Part shown: piece after piece, positions 1,855-21,619 of the stretch
Position numbering within the stretch: the stretch's first letter is position 1
How the letters are laid out: the number at the start of each line of letters is the position of its first letter
Assembly: GCA_002428405.1 (NCBI GenBank)
Contig: DIWD01000026.1
Span: 1 to 21,810, forward strand
Reading direction: 5' to 3'
Length of the DNA stretch: 21,810 bases
Origin: a bacterium UBA6115
Lineage (GTDB): Bacteria; Bacillota_A; Clostridia; Christensenellales; Aristaeellaceae
The notes under the pieces: generated by a model
Databases searched by the model: none
What the model was told of the DNA's origin: nothing
What the model saw: the letters and a program-made list of their open reading frames with translations, nothing else
Translations under genes and position numbers: made by a program

Positions 1855-1858
1855 ATGA
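1724..1858 (+). CDS. possible 44-residue leader ORF overlapping the next start by ATGA
   Basis: An ATG at 1724 opens a 44-residue frame inside the leader. Its TGA stop (1856-1858) overlaps the ATG of the next gene (1855-1857) in the classic ATGA arrangement that couples translation. The peptide has no recognisable domain, signal or membrane helix. No proper Shine-Dalgarno is seen; only CCGGA directly abuts the ATG. An open run of 45 codons can arise by chance, so the coupling overlap is the main reason to list it. Confidence 0.28.
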   Translation: MTIFPKALVQKTDSSIEGTNSPLSQVKILFGFQHPLPARKVYGT

Positions 1859-2619
1859 CGTTCGCAAGCATTACATCCTATGATTCTCAGCCTTCATCCG
1901 ATTTATTTCGGAAAAAATATTACGGCGTCATATATCAGCACGCCTTCAGGGTAACAGGCGCCGACCAGCCGGCAAAGAAACTCACGGAGCGGGTCTTCCA
2001 GGAACTGGAGCGCCGCTACGCCAGCAGCCCATTGACCGGGCATATTGACGCCTACCTGGCCGCGCAGGTTTATCTGTCTTATGCGCAAAAAGGACTGGGT
2101 GACTCTGATGATGGCATGGAAAACGATAGCCTCATACCCGAAGCGGAAAAGGCAAGGCATATAAGCAATCCGCCTGAGGCTGCGCCAACCGCAAAAGTGA
2201 GCCGGGTTACAGAGTATCCCGCTTCCATAAAAGAAAACCCTGCCAAGGCTGACAACCGAGCGGATACAGCGCCGGCACCCCAGGCAGCCAAAGCCTCAGC
2301 ACCAGCCCCCAAGGAAGAGCCGCGGGCATCTGCTCCGCGCGGCGGGCTCGCTGAACCCATGCCCGTCATCGCTTCTTCGCCAAGGGACCGGGAGTATTAC
2401 GACAGGAACAGCACGATCTACTGGACCCCTGGGATGGAAACAGAGGTTTCATCTCCCGAGGAAGAGCCGGAAGATTCTATGGATTTTGAGTTTCCAAAAC
2501 AGCCAGTGCGCCGGCACTCTGCCTTATTCAGTATCCTCAACGGACTGCTGGCTCTGTGCTGTATAGGCGCCATCGTTTTTCTGCTGATAGAATTGGAAAT
2601 AATACCGCCACTTTTCTGA
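1855..2619 (+). CDS. tail-anchored protein with a sigma-70 region-2-like N-terminal domain
   Basis: This 254-residue protein is the first well-supported gene of the operon. Residues about 15-80 have the rhythm of an ECF sigma region 2: a YYGVIY helix, then RVTG, then LTERVFQELERRY, then an IDAYLAAQVYLSY helix in place of the usual WLYRIARN segment. The acidic A-E-D before LTQEVF is replaced by A-K-K, and there is no region 4, so it is unlikely to direct RNA polymerase on its own. Residues 80-220 form a low-complexity linker rich in Pro, Ala and Glu. Residues about 224-246 form a single C-terminal helix, so the head should be cytoplasmic and tethered to the membrane. The start has AGAAAGG ten bases upstream. 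The function is unknown; by position it may be a scaffold or regulator of the polysaccharide machine. The sigma-like resemblance was judged by eye. Confidence 0.7.
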   Translation: MTFASITSYDSQPSSDLFRKKYYGVIYQHAFRVTGADQPAKKLTERVFQELERRYASSPLTGHIDAYLAAQVYLSYAQKGLGDSDDGMENDSLIPEAEKARHISNPPEAAPTAKVSRVTEYPASIKENPAKADNRADTAPAPQAAKASAPAPKEEPRASAPRGGLAEPMPVIASSPRDREYYDRNSTIYWTPGMETEVSSPEEEPEDSMDFEFPKQPVRRHSALFSILNGLLALCCIGAIVFLLIELEIIPPLF

Positions 2620-2648
2620 GAACCTATACGAAATGAGGCCCGATAACA

Positions 2649-3350
2649 ATGAAAAACGACGTCACGCTCAATAATTCACTCAAACGCAGATGGGGGAAGT
2701 ATTACAAGGCCGACGAGGTTGAGGGATACTTTGCAAACGTCATGCAGGCCATCGCGCCGGAACGCAAGGAACTCAAAGCCCTGCGCGAGCGGTTTGACGC
2801 GATTCTCCAGGAAAAGGAAGACCATAGGGATTCCGCGGTAGAACTGGGGAAACGCGCACTGAAGGCTACTGAGGAAGCCGATACAAAAACACAGGAAATC
2901 CTGCGCCTGAGCGAAAAACTGGCCAGGAGCCAGGTGGATAACGCCCGGTTGAGTGAACAACTGTCCCAACAGGCTGTCGAGCTTGCCAGACTGCAGACGA
3001 AAGCGGATAAACTGGGTGAGCTGCTGGCAACGGTTGAACGCCAGAATCCAGTTGAGCAGATGCTTGATACAGAGCGCAAGACCAAGCAGCTGCTTGATAA
3101 GGCCAAGAGTGATAAGGAGGAAATCCTCCGGCTTGCATATGAGAAACGCTCGCGCATGATCGCGGCAAGCCGCGCCGCATATTACCATGCCCTGCAATTC
3201 AAACAGGATATGACAGATCATTTCCACCGCATGGAAGAGGATCTCAACGCCTCCATTGACGTATTGCGTCAGTCCGAAAGCATGCGTTTCGCCCTTCCTC
3301 AGGATGAGGAAACGCCCATCAGGAATGTGGAGCAAGAGTATTCATCATGA
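2649..3350 (+). CDS. DivIVA-like cytoplasmic coiled-coil protein
   Basis: This 233-residue protein is soluble, with no signal or membrane segment. The first 30 residues (LKRRWGKYYKADEVEGYFANVM) recall the DivIVA/GpsB N-terminal motif, in which an aromatic turn is followed by x-Y-x-x-x-E-V-x-x-F. Residues about 35-135 are an almost unbroken Leu/Glu/Lys/Gln heptad coiled coil, and residues about 140-215 form a second helical stretch. DivIVA proteins bind curved membrane and recruit envelope machinery to poles or septa, so this one may position the synthase; that is inference. It starts 29 bases after the previous gene with a weak GAGG site. It ends in a 4-base ATGA overlap with the lipoprotein gene, which implies translational coupling. 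A generic coiled-coil protein is the alternative. Confidence 0.7.
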   Translation: MKNDVTLNNSLKRRWGKYYKADEVEGYFANVMQAIAPERKELKALRERFDAILQEKEDHRDSAVELGKRALKATEEADTKTQEILRLSEKLARSQVDNARLSEQLSQQAVELARLQTKADKLGELLATVERQNPVEQMLDTERKTKQLLDKAKSDKEEILRLAYEKRSRMIAASRAAYYHALQFKQDMTDHFHRMEEDLNASIDVLRQSESMRFALPQDEETPIRNVEQEYSS

Positions 3351-4966
3351 TGAAGGAGAAAACCAGGAGAGTGTCCCGGCGGGCCGCGGTAAGCCTGCTT
3401 CTGTGCGCTGTCATGGCGCTGGCGGCCGGGTGTGCGCCAAAAACCGGAACGGAAAATCCTAAATCGACCTATCTGCCCAGGTATACCGTTTCACCCGCGC
3501 CCGCGCTGACCAATGAGCCGGCAAAAGTATATGGCAGCGTTCTGACAAACAAGCGCGTCGTCAGCATCATCCTGGAAGGCTACTCTGACGATGTTTCAAT
3601 GCGGTTGCTGATTGAAGCGCTCAAGGCGTATCAGGTTCCCGGCGTGTTCTTCATCAGCGGGGTTGCAGCCAACGAACACCCGGACGTTGTAAAGGAGATC
3701 TCGGAAAGCGGCTTCATCATCGGCAATTACGGCCTGAACGCGCCGAAAAAAATGCAGGAAAAGGATGTGCAGACCAACCTGGAGCAGTTCAGCCACGGCC
3801 AGGAACAGCTGGAGATGGTCACGGGGAAAACACCCAAGCTGTTCCGCGGCAACGGTTCAGAGTACACCAGGGAACTGCTTCAGACAGCCGCGTTGGCAGG
3901 TCTGGAAGCCGGCGTCCTGCCCTCGGTCTACCTGAACCACCATAGCTTCCGCAAGCAGGACGACGCCCTGATTTATACCCAGCGGCTGACCCCGGGCGCC
4001 ATCATCTCCATCAAGCTGGGGCAGGAACTCGACGCCGCAGAGTATGAGCGGGCGTATGAAAGCATGGACAACCTGGCGATAGATCCTCCGCCGCACCTGT
4101 CGGATGACATGGAGGAGCTCATTGAGGTTCGTTATATCAATGTGGCGCAGGTTTTTTCCTGGCTGCTGGAAGCGCTGAAAGAAGAGGGCTACACTGTGCT
4201 GCTGCCCCAGGCGCTTCAGGCAGAGCGGATCACCATGTTTGATTCACCCGCAGTGCTTGATGAACTGACGCTGGCCGCGCTGGACGAAACGGCCTACGCG
4301 CTTCCGGTGACCGCAGCACCCCTTGGCGTAACGGAAGGCCCCGCCCAGAGCGCCAGCCAGCTCAGCGGCGTCGTCCTGGTCGGCGATTCCATCCTCCAGG
4401 GGGTGGAGGGTTATGTCGCCTGGCGGCGGCAGAACGATCCCGGATTCCTTGGGGATACACGATTCCTGACCACGCCCTCGTTTGGCATCCGGACCGCCCT
4501 GATGCGGATCACTGACCTGTCGGAGCATCCGAAGGTGGACGGAGAAAAAATGGCCATCGCGGACGCTCTGCTGAAGCTGCAGGCAAAGACCGTCATCCTC
4601 ATGCCCGGGCTGTCAGATATACGCCAGTACTCAGCAAACGCGCTCATTGACAGCATCAAGCTGATGATCTATCAGATCCGCGAGAAGAACCCCGGCATCC
4701 GGATCTTCCTGCAATCCATACCCCCGGGAACAGCCCTGAAAATCGGGAAGCCCGATAACCAGAAGATCTTCCAGTACAACCTTGCCGTCTACAAGTTCTG
4801 CCTGTCCTTCGGGATCCCCTTCATCGACGGGGCTTCCGCCCTGCGGGACAGTGACGGCAACCTGCCGCTGTCGCTGTGCATTGATCAAAACACTTACGGC
4901 TACCATCTCAACGACGAAGGATGCCAAATGATGCTTGATTATCTCCTTCGCCATTGGCCAACCTGA
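3347..4966 (+). CDS. lipoprotein with a decayed NodB-like domain and a C-terminal SGNH-hydrolase-like domain
   Basis: The 539-residue product begins with a basic stretch, a hydrophobic core and a lipobox-like AAGC with Cys29, so it is probably a lipoprotein on the outer face of the membrane. Residues about 68-290 follow the NodB polysaccharide-deacetylase fold order. The TFDDG motif has become ILEGYSDD, and the His-x-x-x-His motif has become GNYGLNAP, so metal-dependent deacetylation is not expected. Residues about 341-537 look like an SGNH/GDSL domain: block I is VGDSIL (Ser348) and the last block keeps HLN (His520). Block III reads GLSD instead of G-x-N-D, and the Asp three residues before His520 is Tyr. 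It may handle O-acyl groups or only bind glycan. It is coupled by ATGA to the gene before it and lies 31 bases before the synthase. Confidence 0.8.
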   Translation: MMKEKTRRVSRRAAVSLLLCAVMALAAGCAPKTGTENPKSTYLPRYTVSPAPALTNEPAKVYGSVLTNKRVVSIILEGYSDDVSMRLLIEALKAYQVPGVFFISGVAANEHPDVVKEISESGFIIGNYGLNAPKKMQEKDVQTNLEQFSHGQEQLEMVTGKTPKLFRGNGSEYTRELLQTAALAGLEAGVLPSVYLNHHSFRKQDDALIYTQRLTPGAIISIKLGQELDAAEYERAYESMDNLAIDPPPHLSDDMEELIEVRYINVAQVFSWLLEALKEEGYTVLLPQALQAERITMFDSPAVLDELTLAALDETAYALPVTAAPLGVTEGPAQSASQLSGVVLVGDSILQGVEGYVAWRRQNDPGFLGDTRFLTTPSFGIRTALMRITDLSEHPKVDGEKMAIADALLKLQAKTVILMPGLSDIRQYSANALIDSIKLMIYQIREKNPGIRIFLQSIPPGTALKIGKPDNQKIFQYNLAVYKFCLSFGIPFIDGASALRDSDGNLPLSLCIDQNTYGYHLNDEGCQMMLDYLLRHWPT

Positions 4967-4997
4967 CGCCGACTCTCCAGGGGGAAAGGGAAGCTTC

Positions 4998-6803
4998 ATG
5001 TCCAACAAAAAACCAGTCACGGAGCAGATGATACAGCCGCAGACAGACAGACGGCTGCTTCCTCATGTTCCGGACCCCTATCTGATCCGTTCCGCGGCAG
5101 ACCGGCGTGATGATCTGCCGGGCGATCCCCACAAGCCCCAGCACGCGCGATTCGCAGGCAGGCGCTACTGTGTCCGATTTGCTGTGAAAGTTCAGGTGAC
5201 AGGGAGACTGTCAAGGACGCTTGACGCGGTCTGCGATGATATTTCCCAGACCGGCATGCGCATCAATCTTCCCAGGGGGAAAAGGACCTCCGCGCTGAAA
5301 GCGGGGGACACCTGCCACCTGACATTCAACCTGACGCCGGGGATTTTGCAGGAAGGTACTGAAAAACGTTACCGGGTGAAGGCCAAGGTAGCCCGGGTCA
5401 GCCTTGAGCAGGATACTTTCGCGGTGCAGTTTGACAAGCCGCTTTACGAATACCGCCGCAAATCCAAGGACAATTTCCTCCTGACGCTTGCCTCTTTGTT
5501 CCTGATGCTGGTGACGATGGTGATCCTGCTGATGCGGGCTGAGAGCGTGCTGTACTTCAGCCAGAACAGCCTTTTGTACGCCTATTCGATCGTGACGGCG
5601 GCTTTCCTGCTGTCGCGGTATCTCTTCGGCGCGTTGTACCGGTCTGTCCCGGTGGACCCCAATTACACCCCGAGCATCACCATTGTGATCCCCTGCTTCA
5701 ATGAGGAGACCTGGATCTCAAGAACGATCCTCAGCTGCATCGACCAGGACTATCCGGTGGACAAGCTTGAAATCATCATCGTGGACGACGGCTCAAGCGA
5801 CCGCTCCGTGGACGCGATCAAGAGCACGGTCCAAAAACTCTGGCAGGAAAGCAGCCGCTTTAAGACCCATGAACGCATCCGCGTTTTTTTCCAGAAACAC
5901 AACCAGGGCAAGCGCGAGGCCATGGCCCTTGGCATCCGCAACACGCACACGGAGTTGGTGGCCTTTGTGGATTCGGACAGCTTCCTGGAACCGGACGCCA
6001 TCCGCAACCTGGTCCAGCCGATGGTCGACCCCAAGATGGCGGGTGTTGCCGGACGGACTGACGTTGCCAACACCTACACGAACTGGCTGACCAAAATGCA
6101 GTCCGTCCGCTATTACATTTCCTTCAGGATCATCAAGGCCGCAGAAGCCTATTTCAGCTCCGTGATGTGCCTGTCCGGCCCCCTGTCCTGCTACAGGATG
6201 GAAGCGGTGAGCGAGGTGCTGGATGAGTGGCTGAACCAGACTTTCCTGGGGCGCAAGGCCACCTTCGGGGATGACAGGAGCCTGACGAACTTCGTGGTCA
6301 AGAAGCACCGCACCTACTACCAGGACACCGCCATCTGCTCCACCCTGGTGCCCAGCAACCAGAAAGTGTTCCTGAAGCAGCAAATGCGCTGGAAACGCTC
6401 CTGGCTGCGGGAGAGCCTGAAGGCCGGCGGGTTTATGTGGCGCAAGGAGCCCTTGATGTCGATGTCTTTCTATATGGGGCTCCTGATCCCCCTGATCGCG
6501 CCGCTGATCGTGATTTACAACCTGATCTATGTCCCCTTCGTCCTGCACATTTACCCCATCACCTTCCTGCTGGGAATCCTGATGATGTCTCTGATGATGA
6601 GCTTTGCGCAGTTGCTCCTGAAGAAAAGCACCCTTTGGGTATACGGGATGTGGTTCTGCCTGTATTACGAGGCCATCCTGCTCTGGCAAATGCCCTACGC
6701 CTGGATCACTTTCTGGGTGTCTGACTGGGGAACGCGCAGCAATAAGAAAAAGGGCAAGGCAAAAATCGAAAACCAGCCGAAGATCGAAACGTTCTATACT
6801 TGA
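4998..6803 (+). CDS. membrane GT2 polysaccharide synthase, hyaluronan/chitin-synthase-like, with N-terminal PilZ domain
   Basis: This protein likely polymerises a sugar nucleotide and exports the chain. From the chosen start it has 601 residues. Residues about 50-148 are a PilZ domain with both c-di-GMP motifs intact: R56-x-x-x-R60 and D81-x-S83-x-x-G86. Two helices follow (about 159-179 and 190-213). The GT-A domain has DDG (263-265), D325-S-D327, GDD (424-426) and Q461-x-x-R464-W465. About three more helix regions follow (488-575), then W577-G-T-R580, a motif known from hyaluronan synthases. The SGPLSCYR, NQTFLG, GDDRSLTN and QQMRWKRS stretches also recall HAS and NodC. The ATG at 4998 is preferred because GGGAAAGGG lies seven bases upstream; an in-frame ATG at 4935 would overlap the previous gene by 32 bases. 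BcsA carries its PilZ domain at the C-terminus, so the N-terminal position is unusual. The substrate cannot be fixed. Confidence 0.92.
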   Translation: MSNKKPVTEQMIQPQTDRRLLPHVPDPYLIRSAADRRDDLPGDPHKPQHARFAGRRYCVRFAVKVQVTGRLSRTLDAVCDDISQTGMRINLPRGKRTSALKAGDTCHLTFNLTPGILQEGTEKRYRVKAKVARVSLEQDTFAVQFDKPLYEYRRKSKDNFLLTLASLFLMLVTMVILLMRAESVLYFSQNSLLYAYSIVTAAFLLSRYLFGALYRSVPVDPNYTPSITIVIPCFNEETWISRTILSCIDQDYPVDKLEIIIVDDGSSDRSVDAIKSTVQKLWQESSRFKTHERIRVFFQKHNQGKREAMALGIRNTHTELVAFVDSDSFLEPDAIRNLVQPMVDPKMAGVAGRTDVANTYTNWLTKMQSVRYYISFRIIKAAEAYFSSVMCLSGPLSCYRMEAVSEVLDEWLNQTFLGRKATFGDDRSLTNFVVKKHRTYYQDTAICSTLVPSNQKVFLKQQMRWKRSWLRESLKAGGFMWRKEPLMSMSFYMGLLIPLIAPLIVIYNLIYVPFVLHIYPITFLLGILMMSLMMSFAQLLLKKSTLWVYGMWFCLYYEAILLWQMPYAWITFWVSDWGTRSNKKKGKAKIENQPKIETFYT

Positions 6804-6909
6804 CCCGGCGGCAGGGAGCTGTCAAAGGCTGAAAGCCTGCGGATGAACGGTCAGGTTTAACGCAACAACGATGCAGCACACCCGCACATGGAAGGAGCAA
6901 TGCCCGAAC

Positions 6910-8832
6910 ATGGAGGAATCCGGCGATCGCACGCAGCTCGCTCCGCAGACCGAGCAGATGCTGAGGCGGAAAAACACTTTTAAGACGATCAGGACCGTGG
7001 TTCAGATCGTCATTCTGGCAGCCGCTGTGCTTTTGGGCATCTATCTGCTGATCCCCAAACCCAAGCCACAGGCCGAACTGACAAGCGGGTCATTGGCAAA
7101 TCCTGGGGGCCTCATTTCAGACGTCGCCGGGAGCAACCGGTTTATCGCCATTTCCTATCCAGGGCTCACGGAATCAAAGAAACTTGAAAGCAAAATCGTC
7201 AACTATGAAGTCTTCCGCCAGCAGATAGAAGCGCTGAAAGCCTCCGGATACGTGACTATCTCCCAGGAAGACATCATCGATTACTACATGCATTACGGGA
7301 GCCTGCCGGAGAAAGCGCTGTTCCTGTTCTTTGAGGACGGCGTTCGCAATACCACCACGCTGGCACAGAGGGTCCTGGAGGAGAACGGTTACAGGGCTAC
7401 GGCGAGCACGTACGCCAACAACATGGGAGAAAAGAACAGCTCCTACATTACCGGTTCGACCCTGAAATCCCTGAGCAGAAGCGGTGTCTGGGAGACCGGC
7501 TCCAACGGCTACAGGCTCTCCTATATCAACGTCTTTGACCGTTACGGCAATTATTTCGGCCACCTCAACGCAAACGTCTTCCTCAAAGTCTACAAATACC
7601 TCTGGCGGGACTATAACCACTATCTGATGGATTATAAGCGGGACAAGGACAGGCTGCGCGAGGAAAGCGACACCCAGCTCACCGCGCGCATCCGCGAGGA
7701 CTACAGGCTGATGGAAGAAGCTTATCTAGATGCGCCGGGTTTTGTTCCGGGCCTTTATATTCTGATGCATTCCAACACCGGCGCCTTCGGCACGACCGCT
7801 GTTGCCAGCAACACTAACCGTGACAGCCTGACCAGCCTTTATGCCATGAACTTCAACCGACAGGGGACCGCCCTGAACACGCTTGATTCGTCCATATATG
7901 ACCTGTCCCGGCTTCAGGTGCAGAGTTATTTTTCAACCAACCACCTCCTGATGCGCATCTGGGACGATACGGGCGACAAGATGGCCTTTTTCACCGGCGA
8001 CAAGCAGGAAGCGGAGAAATGGTATGCGGACGTAGGGGTTGCTGAATACGCGGATAACAGGATCATCCTGACCTCGCAGCCGAGGGGCGAAGGGCTCATC
8101 ACACTGAAAAACCAGCTGTTCTCCGACCTTGACATGACGGTCACCCTGCAGGGCAACCTGATGGGATGCCAGAGCATTTATCTGCGCACGGACCGCAATC
8201 TGCAGCAAGGCATCCAGGTCGCTGCGGAAGACAATGAAATCGTTGTCCGTGAACTGGGCATTACGCCAAAGGAGATATTCCGTCAGAATCTGTTCGAGTT
8301 TGACGGCGGGCCGTTTGTTTCACTGCAGGAGGATGAATACAATGGCCTGGTGGCGCTGCAGGAAGCGCTGATCGCGTTTGAGCCGGACCCGATCAGGGTG
8401 GAGGAGGCGAAGGCTGAACTCACCAGACTGCGGAGCATTCAGCCGAAAACCCTGGCCATGGGCGGCGCTCCGTATTACCCGACTGTGGACCTGTCCGACC
8501 GGGGCAACCGGGAAGTCCGCATCCGTCTGGTGGGCTCGCGCCTCAGCATTTGGGTGGATGACCGCATCATGGTGGAACAGCTGCTTGTCTCCACCAATCC
8601 CATGGGCTCCCTTGCCCTGGGGTCCGGGGTATTCTACGACAAAGAGAAGCTCAGCCAGAGATTCCTCTATGACGACGTGTATGACGCGGTCTTCGTCAGT
8701 CCTGAAATCCGGGACGCTGAGAATCCAAACACGATCCTGTACACTTATGCGCGCGCGCAGCAGGAGACGATCAACCGCACTATCCAGAGGTGGTTCCAAA
8801 CCGTCGTGGATTTCTTCGTCGAGAGCTTCTGA
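6910..8832 (+). CDS. membrane-anchored NodB-like protein with a C-terminal lectin-like region
   Basis: The 640-residue product has one N-terminal helix (about 29-48) after a basic cytoplasmic stretch, so the body should be extracytoplasmic. Residues about 75-300 follow the polysaccharide-deacetylase fold. They include FFEDG (Glu142-Asp143) in place of FDDG, GSNGYRL at 197-203 where the His-x-x-x-His motif should be, and LMHSNTG with His287. Loss of both zinc-binding histidines argues against normal catalysis. The region about 370-625 contains two beta-rich halves (an IYLRTD strand, and later LSIWVDDRIMVEQ with FLYDDVYDAVFV) that resemble a ConA-like jelly-roll split by a helical insert; this is inference. 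The start at 6910 is preferred over the in-frame ATG at 6871 because GAAGGAG (6891-6897) precedes it, though the 12-base spacing is long. A 106-base gap separates it from the synthase and shows no terminator. Confidence 0.82.
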   Translation: MEESGDRTQLAPQTEQMLRRKNTFKTIRTVVQIVILAAAVLLGIYLLIPKPKPQAELTSGSLANPGGLISDVAGSNRFIAISYPGLTESKKLESKIVNYEVFRQQIEALKASGYVTISQEDIIDYYMHYGSLPEKALFLFFEDGVRNTTTLAQRVLEENGYRATASTYANNMGEKNSSYITGSTLKSLSRSGVWETGSNGYRLSYINVFDRYGNYFGHLNANVFLKVYKYLWRDYNHYLMDYKRDKDRLREESDTQLTARIREDYRLMEEAYLDAPGFVPGLYILMHSNTGAFGTTAVASNTNRDSLTSLYAMNFNRQGTALNTLDSSIYDLSRLQVQSYFSTNHLLMRIWDDTGDKMAFFTGDKQEAEKWYADVGVAEYADNRIILTSQPRGEGLITLKNQLFSDLDMTVTLQGNLMGCQSIYLRTDRNLQQGIQVAAEDNEIVVRELGITPKEIFRQNLFEFDGGPFVSLQEDEYNGLVALQEALIAFEPDPIRVEEAKAELTRLRSIQPKTLAMGGAPYYPTVDLSDRGNREVRIRLVGSRLSIWVDDRIMVEQLLVSTNPMGSLALGSGVFYDKEKLSQRFLYDDVYDAVFVSPEIRDAENPNTILYTYARAQQETINRTIQRWFQTVVDFFVESF

Positions 8833-8849
8833 TCAGGAGGATGACTGAG

Positions 8850-9860: not shown

Positions 9861-9875
9861 CAAGAGGTGGTATTC

Positions 9876-12402: not shown

Positions 12403-12420
12403 CAAAGTAAGTAGGCTCGG

Positions 12421-12450: not shown

Positions 12451-12462
12451 CACAGCAGGCAT

Positions 12463-14745
12463 GTGGTGGCTCTGATACCCGGAAAAAAACAATTCAGAAC
12501 GACGGTCGTCCTGTTGCTGCTGATCGCAGGCGTACTGGCAGGCGCCTATCGTTTGCGCGGCGTGAAAGAGGAAGAGCCCGTTGTTTCCGTTACCGTTTCA
12601 CCTGTCGTCCAGGGGATCGAAAATGCCCTGCGCCGATATGAAAGAAGCGGGAAGCAGGACAAGTCCACCCTCCAAACCAGTTTCGACAGGAACGCCGGCC
12701 TGAAGGTCGAGCTGGTCTTCTGCGGAATCGGGAATGCCGAATCCACCGGTGAGATCCTCTCCATCCTGCAGGAATACGGCATCAAAGCCGTGTTTTATGT
12801 TGCGGGTTCTGAATTGCCCGTCAGCAACGAGATTCTTCTGCGCATTGCCGAAAACGGCCAGAAGGTCGGGATCACCCATACGGAAAACGGTACCGTCACC
12901 GGAATATCAACGGCAAAGTGGACCATCACGGACCTTGTGAAGACAAGCGTCGCAATACAAGTGATGGTCGGCCTGAAGCCCTCCAGCCTGCTGACCCAAG
13001 AGCCGCCGGATGAGGAGCTGCTGGCCGCCGCTCACGCCTCCTTATTGGAGTCCGTGCTGGTCCCCACAAGGACCTTGCAGCTGGCCTCAGGCCCTTCCCT
13101 GCCAAATCCGGAAACGATCCTGAATGAACTGCCCAGGGGAGCCATTCTGTGCCTGCAGATCAACGGCGTGGCGGAAAGCGGCGTGGCTTACCTTCGGCAG
13201 CTGTGCGCCGCGCTTGTCGAAACTGATTTTGCCAGGAAAGCGAAGTCACTGCTTTCCTCCCCATACGAGCCCGCACGGGAAGTGGCGCGGATCTATACCA
13301 CGGAGCGGGCCGCTGCCTTCACCTTTTCCGGATTTGAGAATCAGGAGGAGCTTGACGGGGTATTGGATGCATTGGCGTCTGTGAACGCAGCCGCGACCTT
13401 TTTTGTCTCGGCGAATGATCTGGCGCAGAACCCATCCGGGGTGAGGGATATCCTCCAAAGCGGGCATGCGCTGGGCATCGCTCCGCTATCCACGGAGGGG
13501 GCGGGCGCGGAAGCAGTGCTGCAGGAGATCCTGCGGATCAAGGAAACCCTGTACAGCGCGTACGCATATGCCAGGCCGCTGCCGGTGCGCCCCGCCTTCG
13601 GCGGCTTCACGGACGTCCTCCGACAGGCCTGCGGCGCCGGCGGCTTCACCCTGCTGAGCGCCCTCGCCGACGCAGTTAAACCTGAGGACGAACGGGAAAC
13701 AGATCCGGCCATCGTGCTGGAAAAGCGATTTCCCCAGAAAAACGGTACACTTCAGCGGGGAGAAATCGTCCACTTCGAAATGAAACAGTACCAGTACAGC
13801 AGTGAAGTACTGGGCGGACTGGTAAGGCTGGTCGCCCAGGAAAGAAACATCTATGCGCTCAAGCCAGTGATGGAGATCCTCGGCAATCAGGCTTACCTTT
13901 ACACCTACCCCCTGAAGAAGGAAAGCATCCTGCCGGAGGTAAGGGACGCCATCCATCCCGGCCAGCTCAACATTGATCCGATGACGGCCATTCAAACCCG
14001 TTATCTTGGAATATTCTGGGTCGATATCCCTTCAGTACTGCCCGGTTTCACCCAGCGGGAAATCAGCAAACTTGACAAAAAAGGATTGGTCGATAACAGC
14101 CAAAACATGGTGTTCCTGACGTTTGACGACTGGGGGACGGACGGAACGGTGACCGGGATCCTTGATGTGCTCAGGAAGCATGAAGCGAACGCCACGTTTT
14201 TTATCAGGACAAACAACGTCCACTACAATCCAAACCTGCTGCGGGCCATCGCGCTGGAAGGGCACAGCATCGCCAGCCATACCCGCACACATTTTCCGCT
14301 GGCCAACAGCACGGATTCTGAAAGAAAGTTCACAGCTCTGACCGAGGCACAGGTGTCGGAGCTGACACTGGACCTGGTGGCCAGCTATGAGGACCTGCAG
14401 TCGATCATAGGCGATATCAGGATCGACGGCCGGCCCGCGCTGACGCGACTGTTCCGCCCGCCGACACTGGCGGTCAGCAAAAGCGGCTTGACCGCCGTGC
14501 TGGACTGCGGTTTTACCTACTCGGTATCCGGAAGCAGCACTCTGAATGACTATGAAGCCAAAAGCGCGGAGAGTCTGGCGGATACACTCCTGCGCAGCAC
14601 TAAAAGCGGCGCTGTGCTGGTGATGCACATGTCCGATAACAGCATTTATACAGCCGAAGCCCTGGACCTGTACTTGGGTAAAATGGCGGAGCTTTCCGGG
14701 GACAAAGCATACCGTTTTGTCAGCCTGGCAGAGGTTTTATACTGA
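12463..14745 (+). CDS. triple-NodB polysaccharide deacetylase, second copy
   Basis: This 760-residue paralogue of the preceding gene has the same order: an N-terminal membrane helix, two decayed NodB modules, and an active third module with F554-D555-D556, H606-TRT-H610, R665-P-P and H722. Similarity runs the full length and is strongest in module 3 (QNMVFLTFDDWGTD, NPNLLRAIALEGHSI, RLFRPPTLAVSK). It should act on the same or a related glycan at the cell surface. The start is uncertain. GTG at 12463 or 12466 is used because the codon aligned with the paralogue's ATG is ATA (12475-12477). The nearest good ribosome site, AGGGAGGA, is 14 bases upstream, which is long. It has its own promoter. 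Its stop is one base from the stop of the convergent signalling operon. Confidence 0.87.
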   Translation: MVALIPGKKQFRTTVVLLLLIAGVLAGAYRLRGVKEEEPVVSVTVSPVVQGIENALRRYERSGKQDKSTLQTSFDRNAGLKVELVFCGIGNAESTGEILSILQEYGIKAVFYVAGSELPVSNEILLRIAENGQKVGITHTENGTVTGISTAKWTITDLVKTSVAIQVMVGLKPSSLLTQEPPDEELLAAAHASLLESVLVPTRTLQLASGPSLPNPETILNELPRGAILCLQINGVAESGVAYLRQLCAALVETDFARKAKSLLSSPYEPAREVARIYTTERAAAFTFSGFENQEELDGVLDALASVNAAATFFVSANDLAQNPSGVRDILQSGHALGIAPLSTEGAGAEAVLQEILRIKETLYSAYAYARPLPVRPAFGGFTDVLRQACGAGGFTLLSALADAVKPEDERETDPAIVLEKRFPQKNGTLQRGEIVHFEMKQYQYSSEVLGGLVRLVAQERNIYALKPVMEILGNQAYLYTYPLKKESILPEVRDAIHPGQLNIDPMTAIQTRYLGIFWVDIPSVLPGFTQREISKLDKKGLVDNSQNMVFLTFDDWGTDGTVTGILDVLRKHEANATFFIRTNNVHYNPNLLRAIALEGHSIASHTRTHFPLANSTDSERKFTALTEAQVSELTLDLVASYEDLQSIIGDIRIDGRPALTRLFRPPTLAVSKSGLTAVLDCGFTYSVSGSSTLNDYEAKSAESLADTLLRSTKSGAVLVMHMSDNSIYTAEALDLYLGKMAELSGDKAYRFVSLAEVLY

Positions 14746-14746
14746 C

Positions 14747-15913
14747 TTATCCGCGGTCTTCCCTCTTGATCAACTCAGCAAACCTCTCCGCGATATCCGG
14801 GTCAAACTGCTTCCCGACCCCGTCCATAATAGCCTTGGCCGCGATTGCTCCCCTTTTTTCCGACGCTGAATCGGTTCGGTTCAGCACGCGGTCATATGTC
14901 TCAACCACTGCGATGATCCTTGATATCAGTGGGATTTCCTCCCCTTTCAGCCCCCTGGGATAACCTTTGCCGTCCCATCTTTCGTGATGGCCGTAAATGT
15001 ATTCAGCGATGTCCAGCGTGTCGTCAAACAGGTTGAGGATGCGATAGCCGACAATCGGATGCTGCCGTATCTTCTCATGTTCTTCCTCCGTCAGGGCCAC
15101 CAGGGTATCTTTCGCCAGGATATCGGGATCCAGCGTTATTTTTCCAATATCGTGAAGGAGAGCCACGCACTGCAGTTTGCTGATCTCCGCGTCGGAAAGG
15201 CCTATCGAAAGGCCCATCTCAATGCTGAGTTGCCCCACGGCCTCCGCGTGCCGTCTCTCCCCGTCGTTCTTTGAGAACAGAACATACGCAATCGTGTCAA
15301 TGACATCTTTGTTGACGGACTGGCGGTTCATCGTCTTGTCTTTGTACATCGCGTTTTCCGCGTTGGCCATCACCACATCCAGTGATTGACCTTCGTTTGT
15401 TTTTGTGTCGCTGCCTAATGAAATGCTGCCATTAATGGCTTCAACACGGGTATTGCGGATCCCCTCCCTGATCCGCGCCAGGATCCCTGCTGTTTCCTCG
15501 CTGTGGGTATTGGGCAGGAGAATGATAAACTCATCTCCGCCGACGCGCATGATGACCCCCTTTTCACCGCAGGACTGCAGGAGGACTTCCGAAAATTTCC
15601 TGATGAGCTCGTCTCCGGCTTCATGACCGAAAATATCATTCGTCAGTTTCAGCACATTGATGTCCGCATAAATGACAGACAGGGGCAGGTTGCCCGGAAC
15701 ATCCATGCTGTGGCGGTTCTCTTCAAAATATCTTCTGTTGAACAGCCCCGAAAGCGGGTCATGATAGTACTGATAACGGATTGCTTCCTCTTTTTCCTTG
15801 CGTTGGCTGATATCCAGAAAGGTGATCACCCCGCCGGTGACATTCCCGGCAATCATTTGGGGAAAGGAACGGTATTCAACGGGAAAGGCGATCCTGTCGC
15901 TCAAATCGCCCAA
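14747..15913 (-). CDS. GGDEF and HD-GYP c-di-GMP turnover protein, 5'-truncated
   Basis: The open frame has 388 residues. Residues 1-45 are only the last part of a PAS domain (FPVEYRS, then TGGVITFLDIS). Residues about 46-200 are a GGDEF domain with intact GGDEF (125-129) and no RxxD inhibitory site at the usual place. Residues about 215-385 are an HD-GYP domain with H254-D255, HHERWDGKGYP (309-319) and HPIVG. The usual A-V-x-D-x-Y-D reads AVVETYD, so one probable metal ligand is Glu. GGDEF makes c-di-GMP and HD-GYP degrades it; both may work here. The frame has no normal beginning: its first start is a TTG at 15913 with no ribosome site. A membrane helix fitting the missing N-terminus lies just upstream in another frame. 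Whether the protein is produced is doubtful. It is the last gene of the minus-strand operon. Confidence 0.75.
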   Translation of the reverse strand: MGDLSDRIAFPVEYRSFPQMIAGNVTGGVITFLDISQRKEKEEAIRYQYYHDPLSGLFNRRYFEENRHSMDVPGNLPLSVIYADINVLKLTNDIFGHEAGDELIRKFSEVLLQSCGEKGVIMRVGGDEFIILLPNTHSEETAGILARIREGIRNTRVEAINGSISLGSDTKTNEGQSLDVVMANAENAMYKDKTMNRQSVNKDVIDTIAYVLFSKNDGERRHAEAVGQLSIEMGLSIGLSDAEISKLQCVALLHDIGKITLDPDILAKDTLVALTEEEHEKIRQHPIVGYRILNLFDDTLDIAEYIYGHHERWDGKGYPRGLKGEEIPLISRIIAVVETYDRVLNRTDSASEKRGAIAAKAIMDGVGKQFDPDIAERFAELIKREDRG

Positions 15914-16068
15914 TATTTTTCTGCTGTTCTTGTTGCCGAGGACATCCAGCCCGCGAAAATCAGGGAACTGATGCCAATGATGGAGATCAGCATTGCGGTG
16001 ATGAACACCCTCCTGATTGTCCTTCTGCTTGACACCTTTCTTTGACTGCTGCTCAAAATCAGAACCAT
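15901..16068 (-). pseudogene. N-terminal membrane-helix fragment of the broken GGDEF/HD-GYP gene
   Basis: Two bases after the TAA of the EAL gene, an ATG opens a 55-residue frame ending at TGA 15901-15903. It has a basic N-terminus and one strong helix (VFITAMLISIIGISSLIFAGW), then SSATRTAEKYWAI. This is what the start of a membrane-bound sensor looks like. The downstream 388-residue frame overlaps it by 13 bases in another phase and begins in the middle of a PAS domain. The simplest reading is one ancestral gene that lost its sensor region and the first part of its PAS domain by an out-of-frame deletion. A separate small membrane peptide is less likely. The AAGG before the ATG is too close to be ideal; a TTG four codons later has better spacing. 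Confidence 0.5.
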
Positions 16069-16070
16069 CC

Positions 16071-18566
16071 TTACGTATTGGAAACTGCCCGTTTATTCAG
16101 AAACTCTATCGCCTGCTCTTCATCAAGGGGCCTGCTGAGAAGAAACCCCTGCATCCTGTCACATCCGCAGCTGAGAAGATACTGCTTTTGCTGTTCATGC
16201 TCCACGCCTTCCGCCGTAACATAGTGTCCCATTTTGTGCGAAATGGAGATGATATCGCTGGTGATGGCTTTTTCAGGTTTGATAAACATCAATGCCTTGA
16301 TGAAGGATCTGTCAATCTTGAGGTTGTTGACATTCAGCTCCCTTTCCCGCTCCAGCGAGGAATAGCCTGTACCAAAATCATCAATGGCAATATGAATGCC
16401 GGATCCTTTCAATTCTCCAAGGATCCTGTTCATCGCCTGATAGTTTGACGCAAAAACTGATTCTGTCACCTCCAGGGTGATGTTCCCGGGGAGAACTCCG
16501 ATGCTGCCGATCAGTTCAAACAGTCTCTCTGTAAAATCGCCGCCCAGCAGCTGAATGGCTGAGATATTGATGGAAATGCCGACATCGTGATGCCCGCTGT
16601 GATTCAACTTTTTCAAAAAGACGAGCGCCTGGCGGATAATTTTCTGGCCTATGGGGATGATCAGCCTGTTTTTTTCAGCATATGGGATGAATTCAAGCGG
16701 CGGAATCAGGCCGTAAGCGGCAGAACGCATCCTGGCCAGAGCCTCAAATCCGCAGATCCGATCTGTTTTAAGATCCATGATCGGCTGATACTGCAGGAAT
16801 AACCCGCCATCCTTTTCATCCTCAATGATGTGGGCCAGTTCGTGCTTGATCTCTTCTTCGCGAAGCACCTGTTCTTCCATTTCCGCATCATAATAACAGA
16901 CACTGAAATCCCTGCCATAAACCTCGATCGCTTTCTCCGAGGCAATCAAAAGCCGCTGCAGAAGTCTGTCAACGGACTCCTCCCTGCCTTGTTCTATTTC
17001 CACAACCCCAATCCCGCCGCCGATCCTTTCACTGGAAAGCAGAAGCCTCAGCGTGCCCGCCAGGTTGTCGCAGAATTGTTTCAGCCCTTCCTTGCCCTGA
17101 TAATCCTTCAGGTAGAAAACATAGCGGTTTTCATAGGTGCGAAATAGTTTCCTTTTGAGGGAACAGTAATGGCTAAGTGAATCAGCGACCTTCCTGACCA
17201 GATCCTGAACGTAATGAAAACCAAAGGTCGTGGTCAATGATTGAAGGCCGCTCAGGTTGATGCTCACCAAAGACTTCTCCCCGTCTGTCTCTTGCTTCAG
17301 ATCCGCATCAAGAAGGCTTTCAAGGCTGTTGCGGTTGAACAGGCCTGTCCATCTGTCATGTTCATTGCTGTATTTGAGGGAGTTTTCTATTGTTTTTCTA
17401 TCAGTAATGTCAATGATGATCCCCTCGAGCGCCTCCACCTCCCCATGAATGTCAAAAATGCCTTCCGCCATTTCGAGGACCCATTTGCGTTCTCCCGTGG
17501 CTGTAATGATCTCATACTCTGACTTCAGGGATTGCCGCTTTGGCAGGATCTTCTCCCATTCATCCCTGAGTCTCTCACGGTATTCCGGCGCGATGATGTC
17601 ATTGAAGGACAGTACTTTATTGCCAATCAGGCTTTCCGGCGGATAACCTGTCAGCTCAAGGCAGCGCCTGGAGATGAACTCCATTGTCCACTCAGGATCA
17701 TACCTGCATCTGTAAGCCATTCCGGGAAGGTTGGAGAGAAGGACGGATTTTGCCCGCTCGCTCTCTATGAGTTCCGCTTCAGCGGATTTACGCCTTGTAA
17801 TATCCTGCACAAGGCAGATGTGGTTGTTCCGGTGTCCGTCCGACAAACTTAAAAGAGCAACAACAATGAAAGCCCAGACGATGGAACCGTCAGGCCTGAT
17901 GTACCGCTTCTCCATGGAATAGGTGTCAATCTCCCCTTCCAAAAGCCTTGTAAAACTTTTGATTTCACCTTCCAGATCATCCGGATGCGTGATTCCTATC
18001 CAGCCCAGCTTATTCAGCTCTTCCTGTGTCCTGCCGGTGATCTGCTCATACATTGGATTGACCTTTATAAAATCACCAGGTTCATCCGATGACGGTTTCT
18101 GCCCGAAGGTGATGACGATGCCGATTGGCGCTTGCATAAAAATCATGTCAAAGGTCAGTCCCTGTTCATACAGCTCACTTTCAAGCGCCTGTTGGATCCT
18201 GAGCAATTCAATATGGATATTGATCCTGGCATTGAGAGAATCAAAATGGATGGGCTTCCTGATATAGTCCACCGCGCCAAGCTGCAGACCCTTTTTTTCG
18301 TTTTCCAGCTCGTCATAGTTCGTCAGGATGATGATACGGGGTCTTTTCCCCCTGTCATTGGGCTTCATCGCATTGAGCACCTGGAAACCATCCATCTGCG
18401 GCATATTCAAATCAAGGATGACCAGGTCAATGTCCATATGCTCCTTCATCATTTCCATGGCTTCAAGCCCGTCACAAGCCAGCAGTACATCATGGCTGCT
18501 GAGCATCTTCCTGATGATGAGGCGATCTGAAGCGGAATCATCGACGATCAGAATTTTGGGGAACAT
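16071..18566 (-). CDS. response regulator with EAL c-di-GMP phosphodiesterase (REC-PAS-PAS-GGDEF*-EAL)
   Basis: This 831-residue cytoplasmic protein begins with a receiver domain (1-125) holding the acidic pair D9-D10, phospho-acceptor D52, T82 and K104. Two PAS domains follow (about 135-265 and 275-400), each ending in a D-I-T-x-R-K motif. The GGDEF domain (about 405-560) has lost its signature; the expected site reads YENRYVF, so it should not make c-di-GMP. The EAL domain (about 585-825) is intact, with FEALAR, NIS, EVTES, IDDFGTGYSSL, KIDRSFI and AEGVE, so it should cleave c-di-GMP to pGpG. The ATG has AAGGAGG seven bases upstream and lies inside the end of the kinase gene (19-base overlap). 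That strongly suggests a cognate pair in which the kinase phosphorelay controls this phosphodiesterase. Confidence 0.92.
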   Translation of the reverse strand: MFPKILIVDDSASDRLIIRKMLSSHDVLLACDGLEAMEMMKEHMDIDLVILDLNMPQMDGFQVLNAMKPNDRGKRPRIIILTNYDELENEKKGLQLGAVDYIRKPIHFDSLNARINIHIELLRIQQALESELYEQGLTFDMIFMQAPIGIVITFGQKPSSDEPGDFIKVNPMYEQITGRTQEELNKLGWIGITHPDDLEGEIKSFTRLLEGEIDTYSMEKRYIRPDGSIVWAFIVVALLSLSDGHRNNHICLVQDITRRKSAEAELIESERAKSVLLSNLPGMAYRCRYDPEWTMEFISRRCLELTGYPPESLIGNKVLSFNDIIAPEYRERLRDEWEKILPKRQSLKSEYEIITATGERKWVLEMAEGIFDIHGEVEALEGIIIDITDRKTIENSLKYSNEHDRWTGLFNRNSLESLLDADLKQETDGEKSLVSINLSGLQSLTTTFGFHYVQDLVRKVADSLSHYCSLKRKLFRTYENRYVFYLKDYQGKEGLKQFCDNLAGTLRLLLSSERIGGGIGVVEIEQGREESVDRLLQRLLIASEKAIEVYGRDFSVCYYDAEMEEQVLREEEIKHELAHIIEDEKDGGLFLQYQPIMDLKTDRICGFEALARMRSAAYGLIPPLEFIPYAEKNRLIIPIGQKIIRQALVFLKKLNHSGHHDVGISINISAIQLLGGDFTERLFELIGSIGVLPGNITLEVTESVFASNYQAMNRILGELKGSGIHIAIDDFGTGYSSLERERELNVNNLKIDRSFIKALMFIKPEKAITSDIISISHKMGHYVTAEGVEHEQQKQYLLSCGCDRMQGFLLSRPLDEEQAIEFLNKRAVSNT

Positions 18567-21500
18567 TCTTCATCCTCCTTGAGCGGATCATCCCGCTCCA
18601 GATACCTTATATCCCTGTACTCCACGATCTCGCCAAGCAGCCTCTTCAACAGGTCCAGGAACTTGTTTTCTAGAGCGGGGATCTCCTCTACACTCAGGTC
18701 ATGCAAAGCATTCTGGAGCTTGATGGAGATGCGGAAAACTGCATCAGCCCCGATGCTGCCCGAACTGCCCTTTACCTTGTGCACGATCCGTTCAGCATCC
18801 GTATATCTTTTTTCCAGGACAGCCAGGGAGAGCATGTCCCCGGTATTCAGGTTTTCATCATAATATTCCAATAAAACCTGGCGGTAAATATCCGCGTCGC
18901 CCCCAAGATTCCTCAGGCCGGCAGAGACGTCCAGAACCCGGGACCCGTTTGCCGCGCCGTTCCTCTGGCTTTCAAGGATACCCCTGACGGTCCTGATAAA
19001 AAAGTCAGGGTCAAAGGGTTTGCTGATATAATGGTGGATCCCGCTTTGCTCGCATTTATCCTGAACGCCCATGATGACATCCGCGGTCATTGCGATGATG
19101 GGAACATCTGTTGAAATCTTCCTGATTTCCGCTGACGCTTCATAACCGTTCATGACCGGCATATGTAGATCCATCAGAATCAAATCAATGCTTCCCCTGT
19201 GTTTTTCAAACAGGTCAAGCGCCGCTTTCCCGTTATCGGCCAGAATAGAATCAATGCCGGACTGCTGAAGAAGGGTTTTTACGATAAGCTGGTTTGTCTT
19301 GTTGTCTTCCGCCAGCAGCACCATAAACGCCTTGTCGGGATTGGGGGCGGCACTGACGCTGCCTTTGTCCGGCTTTGCGGCCGGAGTCGTCCCTGCCTTG
19401 AATATGTCAAGGATGACATTCAAGAGCATGGAAGGGATAAATGGCCTTTCAATACCCCCGTCAACACCGAATTCCTTAAGTTTCTCAAACAAATCATCCC
19501 TCATCATTGGCAGGATCATGATGATTTTAGGTTTGCTGGCGATTTTCGCGTTGTCCCTGATGGATGCTGTGAAGCGAAAGCCGCCTTCAGAGGGAGCGTT
19601 GTCATCCAAAATCAGCAAATCATATGCCTTGCCGGATTTGTCCATTGCGGTTTCAAGCATGTCCATAGCTTTAGTCTGCGAATTGGCCAGTTCGCAGCGA
19701 ATACCAAAAGCGTTCAGGTAGCTCCCTGTCAGGCTGATGTCTGCCACAGCTTTTTCCAGAACCAGCGTTTTAATGCCTTCAAGGCGGCCGGCAGTCAAGG
19801 TTTCCACACTCTTCTCTTCCTTTTCCGTATCAACATTCAGGAAAAGATGAATGACAAAGCAGGAGCCTTGTCCCGGAACGCTGGAAACCCGGATCCTTCC
19901 TCCCATCAGATCCAGCAGGTTTTTAACGATCGACAAACCCAGCCCGGATCCTCCAAAGCGGCGGTTGATGCTGCTGTCGCCCTGGATGAAAGGCAGAAAA
20001 AGCTTGTTGACCTGCTCTTCTGTCATGCCGATTCCCGTGTCCTTCACTGTGAATACAAGATGAACCTGATCACTCTTCTTCTCCTCCAGCCCGATTTCCA
20101 GGGATACCTCCCCTTCTGTTGTAAACTTCACCGCGTTGTTGAGGACATTGAGGAGTATTTGTTCGATCCGTTTTGGATCGCCGAAAAACCACCCCGGCAG
20201 ATTGGGGTCTGTTATTATTTTAAGCGCAATGCCCTGTTCGTCAATTCTGTATGAAATGATATTGACGACCTCTTGAATTACCTGGCCGATGTTGAAGGAT
20301 GTGATCTCCAGATCGACCTTTCCCGCTTCAATTTTAGAAAAATCAAGGATGTCATTGATAATATTCAGCATGTTGCCGGACGCCTGGGTAATACGGCTGA
20401 TATACATATTCTGCGTCGGTGAAATATCTGTTTTCTTAAGCAGATGGGCCATCCCCGTAATGGCGTTGAGCGGCGTGCGGATTTCGTGGGACATTCTGGC
20501 TAAAAAGCTGGATTTGAACTCATTCGCCTCATCAGCCGCCTTTTTGGCGATTTCAAGGCTGGCCTGAGCCTTCTCCCTCTCCCTGACCTCTTTTCTCAGC
20601 CGGACATTCCAGAAGATGGAAACGGCCAGGATGACTGCAGCAAACGCGCCGGCGACCGCAATGGCACGCATGATGCGGTCCATGTCAATGTCTGATTCCA
20701 AATCGATCCACTTGCTGTTGATGGCTAATTTTTCTTCCTCAGTGATTGTATCCAGCGCCTTGTCAACAATGCTGATCAGTTCAGGCCAGTCTTTACGGGC
20801 GGCAAAATACAGCGCCTGCTGGTTCTCATTTTCAAACGCGATGAACTTCAGGTTTGTCAGAGCGTTTGTCACAATCAGATAATTCGAGGTTGCAAGGTTC
20901 CCGATATACGCCCTTTCCGAACCGTTTGCCACAGCCGTGAGCGCTTCTTCGGCGGAGTCATACAGGCTCAGGTTGATTTTGGGATATGCCAGCAGATAGC
21001 TGTGATGGGAACTGTTCCTTTGCACTGCCACCGTCATCCTGTCAAGGTTGCTGATTCCGGAAATGCCCATTTCCGAGTCCCTGATGACGATGACGCGCTT
21101 TGAGAAATAATACGGCTTTGAAAAAAGAAAATGCTCCGCCCTGTCTTCTGTCAGTGAAATAGCGGGCATCGCGTCAAGCTCCCCAGCCAATGCCTTTTCG
21201 TAAGCTTCGGGCCATGTCAGGCCTTTCCGCACCTCAAAGCGCAATCCGGTTTTCTCCCTGATGATGGAGAGATAATCCGCTGAGATGCCACGATGCTCTC
21301 CATCCTTGTCAATGAACTCAAAGGGTGTAAACGCGGGGTCCACCCCCAGCTGAATGACAGGGTGGGCCTGCATGAAAGCAAGCTCCTCCTCTGTCCAGGA
21401 AATACCGCCGCCATCGGCGAAGCCGGAAACCAATACAACAGCGGAAAGAAAAAGTGACAGGAACAGCAGCACAATCCCTTTTTTTATCAATGGATACTGG

Positions 21501-21619
21501 CAAAAAGCTGCCTCTCCCGCCCTTTCCCTCTTTAAGCATTGTTCCGCAATCATTGCTCCAGGATTCCTCTCGTGGCTATACCGCAGACTGTCCATGCCGG
21601 TTCCGGAATGAATCGCCAT
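18548..21619 (-). CDS. hybrid sensor histidine kinase (SBP_bac_3-HisKA-HATPase-REC-REC-Hpt)
   Basis: The 1023-residue protein has a membrane helix at about 46-66, then a periplasmic-binding-protein-type sensor (72-306) of the BvgS/amino-acid-binding class (GVDPAFTPFEF at its start), and a second helix at 317-337. HisKA follows with H378 in MSHEIRTPLN. The ATPase domain has NVLNNAVKFT, DTGIGM and GGSGLGLSI. The first REC (about 615-740) keeps LLILDD but lacks the N-terminal acidic pair and the conserved Lys, so it is decayed. The second REC (766-880) is intact, with EDN, D817 and the K-P pair. A C-terminal Hpt domain has H947 in HKVKGSSGSIGA. The expected relay is H378 to D817 to H947 and then to the REC of the EAL protein. 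The ATG at 21619 has AAAGGA four bases upstream. The ligand is probably a small polar metabolite. Confidence 0.93.
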   Translation of the reverse strand: MAIHSGTGMDSLRYSHERNPGAMIAEQCLKRERAGEAAFCQYPLIKKGIVLLFLSLFLSAVVLVSGFADGGGISWTEEELAFMQAHPVIQLGVDPAFTPFEFIDKDGEHRGISADYLSIIREKTGLRFEVRKGLTWPEAYEKALAGELDAMPAISLTEDRAEHFLFSKPYYFSKRVIVIRDSEMGISGISNLDRMTVAVQRNSSHHSYLLAYPKINLSLYDSAEEALTAVANGSERAYIGNLATSNYLIVTNALTNLKFIAFENENQQALYFAARKDWPELISIVDKALDTITEEEKLAINSKWIDLESDIDMDRIMRAIAVAGAFAAVILAVSIFWNVRLRKEVREREKAQASLEIAKKAADEANEFKSSFLARMSHEIRTPLNAITGMAHLLKKTDISPTQNMYISRITQASGNMLNIINDILDFSKIEAGKVDLEITSFNIGQVIQEVVNIISYRIDEQGIALKIITDPNLPGWFFGDPKRIEQILLNVLNNAVKFTTEGEVSLEIGLEEKKSDQVHLVFTVKDTGIGMTEEQVNKLFLPFIQGDSSINRRFGGSGLGLSIVKNLLDLMGGRIRVSSVPGQGSCFVIHLFLNVDTEKEEKSVETLTAGRLEGIKTLVLEKAVADISLTGSYLNAFGIRCELANSQTKAMDMLETAMDKSGKAYDLLILDDNAPSEGGFRFTASIRDNAKIASKPKIIMILPMMRDDLFEKLKEFGVDGGIERPFIPSMLLNVILDIFKAGTTPAAKPDKGSVSAAPNPDKAFMVLLAEDNKTNQLIVKTLLQQSGIDSILADNGKAALDLFEKHRGSIDLILMDLHMPVMNGYEASAEIRKISTDVPIIAMTADVIMGVQDKCEQSGIHHYISKPFDPDFFIRTVRGILESQRNGAANGSRVLDVSAGLRNLGGDADIYRQVLLEYYDENLNTGDMLSLAVLEKRYTDAERIVHKVKGSSGSIGADAVFRISIKLQNALHDLSVEEIPALENKFLDLLKRLLGEIVEYRDIRYLERDDPLKEDEECSPKF

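What the first reader, a model, noticed from the sequence alone, without database searches (positions are those of the whole stretch)
1855..21619. A candidate undescribed c-di-GMP-controlled exopolysaccharide system with its own signalling operon
A tight seven-gene operon for polymer synthesis and modification, plus a further deacetylase gene, converges on a kinase/EAL/GGDEF operon. The synthase reads c-di-GMP and the facing operon changes c-di-GMP, so sensor, messenger enzymes, effector and polymer-tailoring proteins all lie within 20 kb. The gene set (sigma-like tail-anchored protein, DivIVA-like protein, NodB-SGNH lipoprotein, PilZ-HAS-like synthase, GH18, two triple-NodB proteins) matches no named system such as Bcs, Pga/Ica, Pel or Alg.
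Basis: inference. Interest (0 to 1): 0.75.

Follow-up and report, generated by a model that had tools for sequence, protein, structure and literature searches.

The report
Undescribed clostridial exopolysaccharide synthesis operon
This stretch holds a gene set that probably builds, trims and exports a sugar polymer on the surface of anaerobic bacteria under control of the messenger c-di-GMP; its four-gene core recurs in many related bacteria, but none of the papers looked at describes it.

The parts
1638..1666 (+). sigma-70-like promoter (TTGACC, 17, TATAAT) about 190 bases before the first gene
   Evidence: 11 of 12 consensus bases; 3 promoter-like sites in the region against a mean of 0.9 in shuffles; a consensus match only
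1855..2619 (+). tail-anchored protein with a weak sigma-factor-like N-terminal match; clade-specific accessory
   Evidence: NF009172, 20.3 bits, cut-off 222; found in 11 of 80 loci, all in the window's clade; no Pfam family in 9 members
2649..3350 (+). coiled-coil DivIVA-like protein; clade-specific accessory
   Evidence: PF05103 DivIVA matches 3 of 7 family members, not the window's own; on the operon strand in 7 of 80 loci
3347..4966 (+). lipoprotein with a degenerate NodB (CE4) domain and an SGNH domain; core position before the synthase
   Evidence: lipobox read from the sequence
4998..6803 (+). polymer synthase: N-terminal PilZ, transmembrane pair, hyaluronan-synthase-like GT2
6871..8832 (+). 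membrane-anchored PgaB/IcaB-fold CE4 protein with CBM66-like domain and non-canonical active-site residues (E155-D156, E208 and N212)
8841..9860 (+). GH18-like protein keeping the last D and E of the GH18 motif (start inferred; ORF opens at 8790)
9867..12158 (+). triple-NodB protein; only the third domain has DD, HxxxH and RPP
12463..14745 (+). second triple-NodB protein, a paralogue of the previous one, 304 bases downstream
14747..15913 (-). GGDEF+HD-GYP protein, probably N-terminally truncated; absent at this place in L001
16071..18566 (-). REC-PAS-PAS-GGDEF-EAL protein; no GGDEF motif, EAL motifs present (probable phosphodiesterase)
18548..21619 (-). hybrid sensor kinase (SBP_bac_3, HisKA, HATPase, two receiver stretches, Hpt)

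Best explanation
The + strand operon encodes a synthase-dependent exopolysaccharide system. The membrane GT2 enzyme polymerises and extrudes the chain (inferred from fold and invariant catalytic residues). Its N-terminal PilZ domain gates it with c-di-GMP (inferred). On the outer face a membrane-anchored PgaB/IcaB-fold protein with a CBM66-like domain holds or modifies the chain, a GH18-type enzyme cuts it, the third NodB domain of the triple-NodB proteins removes N-acetyl groups, and the SGNH domain acts on O-acetyl groups (all inferred). The substrate is most likely UDP-HexNAc. In lineages with the dehydrogenase, UDP-HexNAcA is probably a second substrate. In Negativicutes a putative outer-membrane protein exports the product. 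The convergent kinase-EAL genes are a separate c-di-GMP module that lies next to the operon in this lineage.
Against: No biochemical evidence. Canonical RxxxR in only 4 of 81 PilZ domains. No riboswitch in the window or in the 9 clade loci scanned with Rfam. No dehydrogenase in the window, L001 or L002 loci. GGDEF presence in 50 of 50 synthase genomes is close to the background of 325 of 348, so it proves nothing. 6 of 8 NodB-type domains in the window lack the canonical residues. 69 of 80 loci have no c-di-GMP gene in the fetched flanks. The putative outer-membrane proteins match no Pfam porin family and no solved structure by sequence, and 9 of 15 end in Phe, so the barrel is my reading.
Confidence: 0.73

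Rival explanations
1. It is a divergent Pga/Ica system making partly deacetylated beta-1,6-GlcNAc (PNAG), with PgaB split into two genes (CE4 fold plus GH18).
For: 6871-8832 has the PgaB/IcaB fold and is followed by a GH18-like gene; the Sporomusa outer-membrane candidate has PgaA-like TPRs.
Against: PgaC/IcaA model 118.9 bits against a cut-off of 422.3 and below NodC (198.2); no PgaD-type family among the window proteins; the CE4 residues are replaced by E-D and E/N in 73-74 of 74; a dehydrogenase is frequent, which PNAG does not need (recalled).
Confidence: 0.15
2. It makes hyaluronan or another HexNAc/uronic-acid glycosaminoglycan: a HAS-type synthase using two sugars.
For: Best solved relatives are hyaluronan synthases by profile (165.6 bits; BcsA about 27) and fold; a source database names some members hyaluronan synthase; UDP-sugar dehydrogenase in 46 of 80 loci.
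Against: The two dehydrogenases scanned score TviB-like (428 and 432 bits) far above UDP-glucose dehydrogenases (at most 161 bits), so HexNAcA rather than GlcA is the likely product; NodB deacetylases are not part of hyaluronan synthesis (recalled); about 25% identity does not fix sugar specificity.
Confidence: 0.2
3. It makes a chitin/chitosan-like beta-1,4 polymer: NodC-like synthase, NodB deacetylases and GH18 chitinase.
For: NodC is the best NCBIfam model for the synthase (198.2 bits); GH18 and NodB are chitin-active families; the best solved relative of the GH18 protein is a probable chitinase (24 bits).
Against: NodC cut-off is 550; solved chitin synthases rank below HAS by fold (26.4 against 29.6) and profile; does not explain the dehydrogenase.
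Confidence: 0.2
4. The operon acts on cell-wall, spore or sporulation glycans and c-di-GMP plays no role.
For: The triple-NodB proteins score best with PdaB/PdaA sporulation models, though below cut-off; canonical PilZ motif mostly missing.
Against: A HAS-type synthase with PilZ; an extra envelope gene in Negativicutes loci only; c-di-GMP riboswitches in relatives; present in Lactobacillus (L027, L036), which forms no spores (recalled).
Confidence: 0.08

Closest known systems
Hyaluronan synthase (Chlorella virus and Xenopus HAS)
   Different: N-terminal PilZ and an extra transmembrane pair; operon with deacetylases, GH18 and a TviB-like rather than UDP-glucose dehydrogenase
Pga/Ica (PNAG) systems
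   Same: PgaB/IcaB-fold membrane protein, GH-type partner, PgaA-like TPRs in the outer-membrane candidate of one locus
   Different: Synthase far below the PgaC/IcaA cut-off, non-canonical CE4 residues, CBM66-like domain, PilZ instead of PgaD
Bcs/Ccs cellulose and RiGT2 beta-glucan synthases
   Same: PilZ fused to a processive GT2
   Different: PilZ is C-terminal in BcsA and RiGT2 (PMC10374906 and PMC4125290, passages). The Ccs operon as described has GH5 and MBOAT/DHHW genes (PMC7710045, passages); the same paper mentions another C. difficile locus with a BcsA/B-like pair, GH113, a WecB-like epimerase and a CE4 protein, which shares a CE4 gene but differs in synthase and hydrolase family
E. 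coli NfrBA-YbcH (N4 glycan receptor)
   Same: c-di-GMP-controlled GT2 synthase with a TPR/barrel outer-membrane partner (PMC8669469, passages)
   Different: Uses MshEN, not PilZ; the word deacetylase does not occur in the main text
Listeria Pss
   Same: c-di-GMP-induced exopolysaccharide of a Gram-positive (PMC4125290, passages)
   Different: Receptor is a GGDEF I-site protein (PssE); the terms deacetylase and GH18 do not occur in that text

Membership tests
Bcs/Ccs cellulose synthase | PilZ domain C-terminal to the GT2 domain | tested here: not met
   PilZ 55-147, GT2 228-407; model agrees
Bcs/Ccs cellulose synthase | CelA/BcsA catalytic subunit model | tested here: not met
   TIGR03030 44.1 bits, cut-off 699.1
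Pga/Ica | PgaC/IcaA synthase | tested here: not met
   TIGR03937 118.9 bits, cut-off 422.3
Pga/Ica | PgaB/IcaB deacetylase fold | tested here: met
Pga/Ica | CE4 metal and base residues (DD, HxxxH) in that protein | tested here: not met
   E155-D156, E208 and N212 in 73-74 of 74; that these columns stand for the canonical ones is my reading, not a superposition
Pel | PelF/PelG-type genes | tested here: not met
   no such family listed among the 12 window proteins; which Pfam families mark Pel is recalled
NodC chitooligosaccharide synthase | NodC equivalog score | tested here: not met
   198.2 bits, cut-off 550
Hyaluronan synthase | HAS GT2/transmembrane fold | tested here: met
Hyaluronan synthase | makes GlcNAc-GlcA polymer | not testable with these tools
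   needs enzymology
c-di-GMP-binding PilZ | [D/N]xSxxG motif | tested here: met
   80 of 81
c-di-GMP-binding PilZ | RxxxR motif | tested here: inconclusive
   4 of 81 (window, L001, L026, L066); second Arg in 80 of 81
Synthase-dependent EPS systems in general | outer-membrane exporter in diderm hosts | tested here: inconclusive
   one gene family in 15 of 15 Negativicutes loci and 0 of 65 others; PgaA-like TPRs in one; barrel itself not shown

The most novel reading that the evidence does not exclude
A widespread, unnamed class of c-di-GMP-controlled surface polymer: a hyaluronan-synthase-type enzyme with a front-mounted, non-canonical PilZ switch makes a HexNAc/HexNAc-uronic-acid chain that NodB enzymes then partly de-N-acetylate into a zwitterionic polymer, with a PgaB-fold protein whose rebuilt active site does a new reaction or acts as a chain chaperone. 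It is shared by gut Faecalibacterium, acetogens and Negativicutes.
Probability: 0.3. Interest if true: 0.82.

Novelty: new variant of a known kind. Interest (0 to 1): 0.62.

Why it matters
Few exopolysaccharides of gut and soil Clostridia are known at gene level (general knowledge). This set gives a testable locus, found in records of Faecalibacterium prausnitzii, Pelosinus, Sporomusa and Anaerocolumna among others, that could explain c-di-GMP-dependent surface polymer in these groups. It pairs a HAS-type synthase with an unusual PilZ placement and a PgaB-fold protein whose altered active-site residues are almost invariant.

Tried and rejected
Signalling operon as part of the system: rejected as a general claim. 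Presence of GGDEF in all synthase genomes as evidence: dropped after the background came out at 325 of 348. The Lactobacillus comparison says a little more: 1 of 61 genomes has the synthase and 18 GGDEF matches; of the other 60, 59 have 0-2 and one (G095) has 11 without a synthase match. Riboswitch in the window: none. Rfam was run on only 28 of the 80 loci (4 with c-di-GMP-I); my own model R1, built from those four, was run on all 80 and the window, so 4 of its 7 hits are by construction and 3 (L067, L075, L077) are new. Dehydrogenase: a first count of 40 loci missed genes masked by antisense ORFs; the direct count is 46, one of them (L064) a dehydrogenase stretch inside a NodB ORF, and one more (genome of L007) lies just beyond the fetched stretch by its coordinates. 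DivIVA-like hits in L039 and L050 (15 bits, - strand) were dropped as chance. The 2 of 72 loci counted as out of order: L078 has its CE4 gene on the other strand; L006 fails only because its synthase ORF was opened too early. Co-location on the 80 loci is biased by choice on the synthase (best 80 of 246 relatives); the 348-genome sample answers that, though 3 of its 7 genomes were already known. A 76-bit hit of the partner profile in a further genome (G449) is counted as a generic CE4 match. The GGDEF excess compares counts made at different cut-offs, and related loci are not independent. Sigma-like gene: no family found. Literature: 10 searches listed no paper that I recognise as describing this operon; I read passages of eight papers, no whole text.
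Full report
Observation. One search confirms seven closely spaced + strand ORFs at 1855-12158, an eighth at 12463-14745 and three convergent - strand ORFs to 21619. Domain scans give: a tail-anchored protein with a weak sigma-like match; a coiled-coil protein whose relatives match DivIVA (3 of 7); a NodB-SGNH lipoprotein; a PilZ-GT2 synthase; a 653-aa protein with a weak CE4 match; a GH18-like protein; two triple-NodB proteins. The - strand has a hybrid kinase, a REC-PAS-GGDEF-EAL protein and a GGDEF-HD-GYP protein. A promoter-like site stands at 1638-1666.

The core recurs. A pattern-based scan of the genome collection found 246 relatives of the synthase; the best 80 became loci. Profiles of the window genes found CE4-type genes in 79 loci, the PgaB-fold protein in 79, GH18 in 73, the sigma-like gene in 11 and DivIVA-like in 9 (7 after two chance hits are dropped). 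72 loci hold all four core genes; in 70 of these they stand in the order CE4, synthase, PgaB-fold, GH18 on one strand (the two others are explained). Of the 8 without all four, 6 are short or end-cut contigs and 2 (L055, L059) show no GH18. Because these loci were chosen by the synthase, I drew 348 genomes of one phylum: 7 have the synthase, the same 7 have strong hits to the partner profile, adjacent in each, and the only further match is a 76-bit generic one. One of 72,556 plasmid records, of Paenibacillus cellulositrophicus, carries the set with its dehydrogenase.

Dehydrogenase and envelope. A nucleotide-sugar dehydrogenase is in 46 of 80 loci, all on the operon strand, and in 37 of the 54 with over 6.5 kb upstream. 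The two scanned score best with the UDP-GlcNAc 6-dehydrogenase TviB (428 and 432 bits, cut-off 592). In Tissierella (L064) a dehydrogenase N-terminal stretch is in one ORF with the triple-NodB protein. L001 and L002 lack it; their genomes, and that of C. sartagoforme, show only weaker matches elsewhere (239-262 bits), ManNAc-dehydrogenase-like in the two that I scanned (G001, G016). So uronic acid in the window's polymer is not shown. A further gene family stands before the operon in 15 loci, which are all the tree rows listed under Sporomusaceae, Selenomonadaceae or Acidaminococcaceae, families of the Negativicutes, and in none of the other 65; Negativicutes are diderm (recalled). I take it for an outer-membrane protein: the Sporomusa version carries TPRs that match PgaA and 9 of 15 end in Phe, but neither Pfam nor the PDB shows a porin.

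c-di-GMP. Rfam found c-di-GMP-I riboswitches upstream in 4 of 28 loci scanned; a model built from them found 7 of 80 (the 4 and 3 more), all on the operon strand and before its first gene, none in the window. GGDEF-bearing genes number 14 in 794 kb of flanks, in 11 loci, against 3.96 expected; related loci are not independent. GGDEF in 50 of 50 host genomes is not evidence, since 325 of 348 of the phylum sample have it.

Signalling operon. In L001 (92% identical synthase) the EAL gene lies 85 bases after the second triple-NodB gene and the kinase follows. In G002 the kinase-EAL pair is on another contig, as far as contig numbers tell; 7 other clade genomes have no kinase match at E 1e-100. The GGDEF-HD-GYP gene is missing in L001 at this place. 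In the window its 5' region has a membrane-anchor-like reading in another frame, which suggests a deletion. The operon is therefore a neighbour, perhaps useful, not a conserved part. The EAL protein lacks a GGDEF motif while EAL and HD-GYP motifs are present, so the module may mainly lower c-di-GMP (inference).

Known or new. The synthase fails the cut-offs for Bcs, Pga/Ica and NodC and no Pel-type family shows. Papers on Ccs, RiGT2, Pss, Nfr, L. acidophilus gts, a c-di-GMP/EPS review, the operon survey of Bundalovic-Torma and the Anoxybacillus genome (passages only) do not, in those passages, describe this gene set. Names given to the best 120 of 3158 database relatives, where any, are glycosyltransferase or hyaluronan synthase. 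I call it a new variant of synthase-dependent, c-di-GMP-linked exopolysaccharide systems. This rests on ten searches of an open-licence library; most subscription papers and all preprints were out of reach.

Noticed in passing
window 14747-16080 (-): GGDEF-HD-GYP gene with a TTG start; upstream DNA encodes a membrane-anchor-like peptide in another frame, as if a sensor part had been deleted; its stop is 1 base from the stop of the facing triple-NodB gene.
   Followed up: partly
L064 7348-9972: Tissierella: dehydrogenase N-terminal stretch and triple-NodB in one ORF, a natural fusion or a deletion scar.
   Followed up: partly
L081 1303-4170: The kinase of the closest relative shows two in-frame TGA codons: broken gene or assembly error.
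   Followed up: no
G019 (L027): Lactobacillus equicursoris genome has 18 GGDEF matches while 59 of 60 other genomes of the genus sample have 0-2.
   Followed up: partly
L023 15966-20883: In C. sartagoforme the core is followed by a membrane protein, a second GT2 and a large membrane-anchored protein resembling BcsB-type genes (recalled resemblance, not tested).
   Followed up: no
window 171-1445 (-): CitMHS/ArsB-type permease divergent from the operon; no relative found in the 80 loci at phmmer E 1e-4.
   Followed up: no
window 2649-3350: DivIVA-like gene inside a polymer operon of one clade, perhaps to place the synthase at pole or septum.
   Followed up: no
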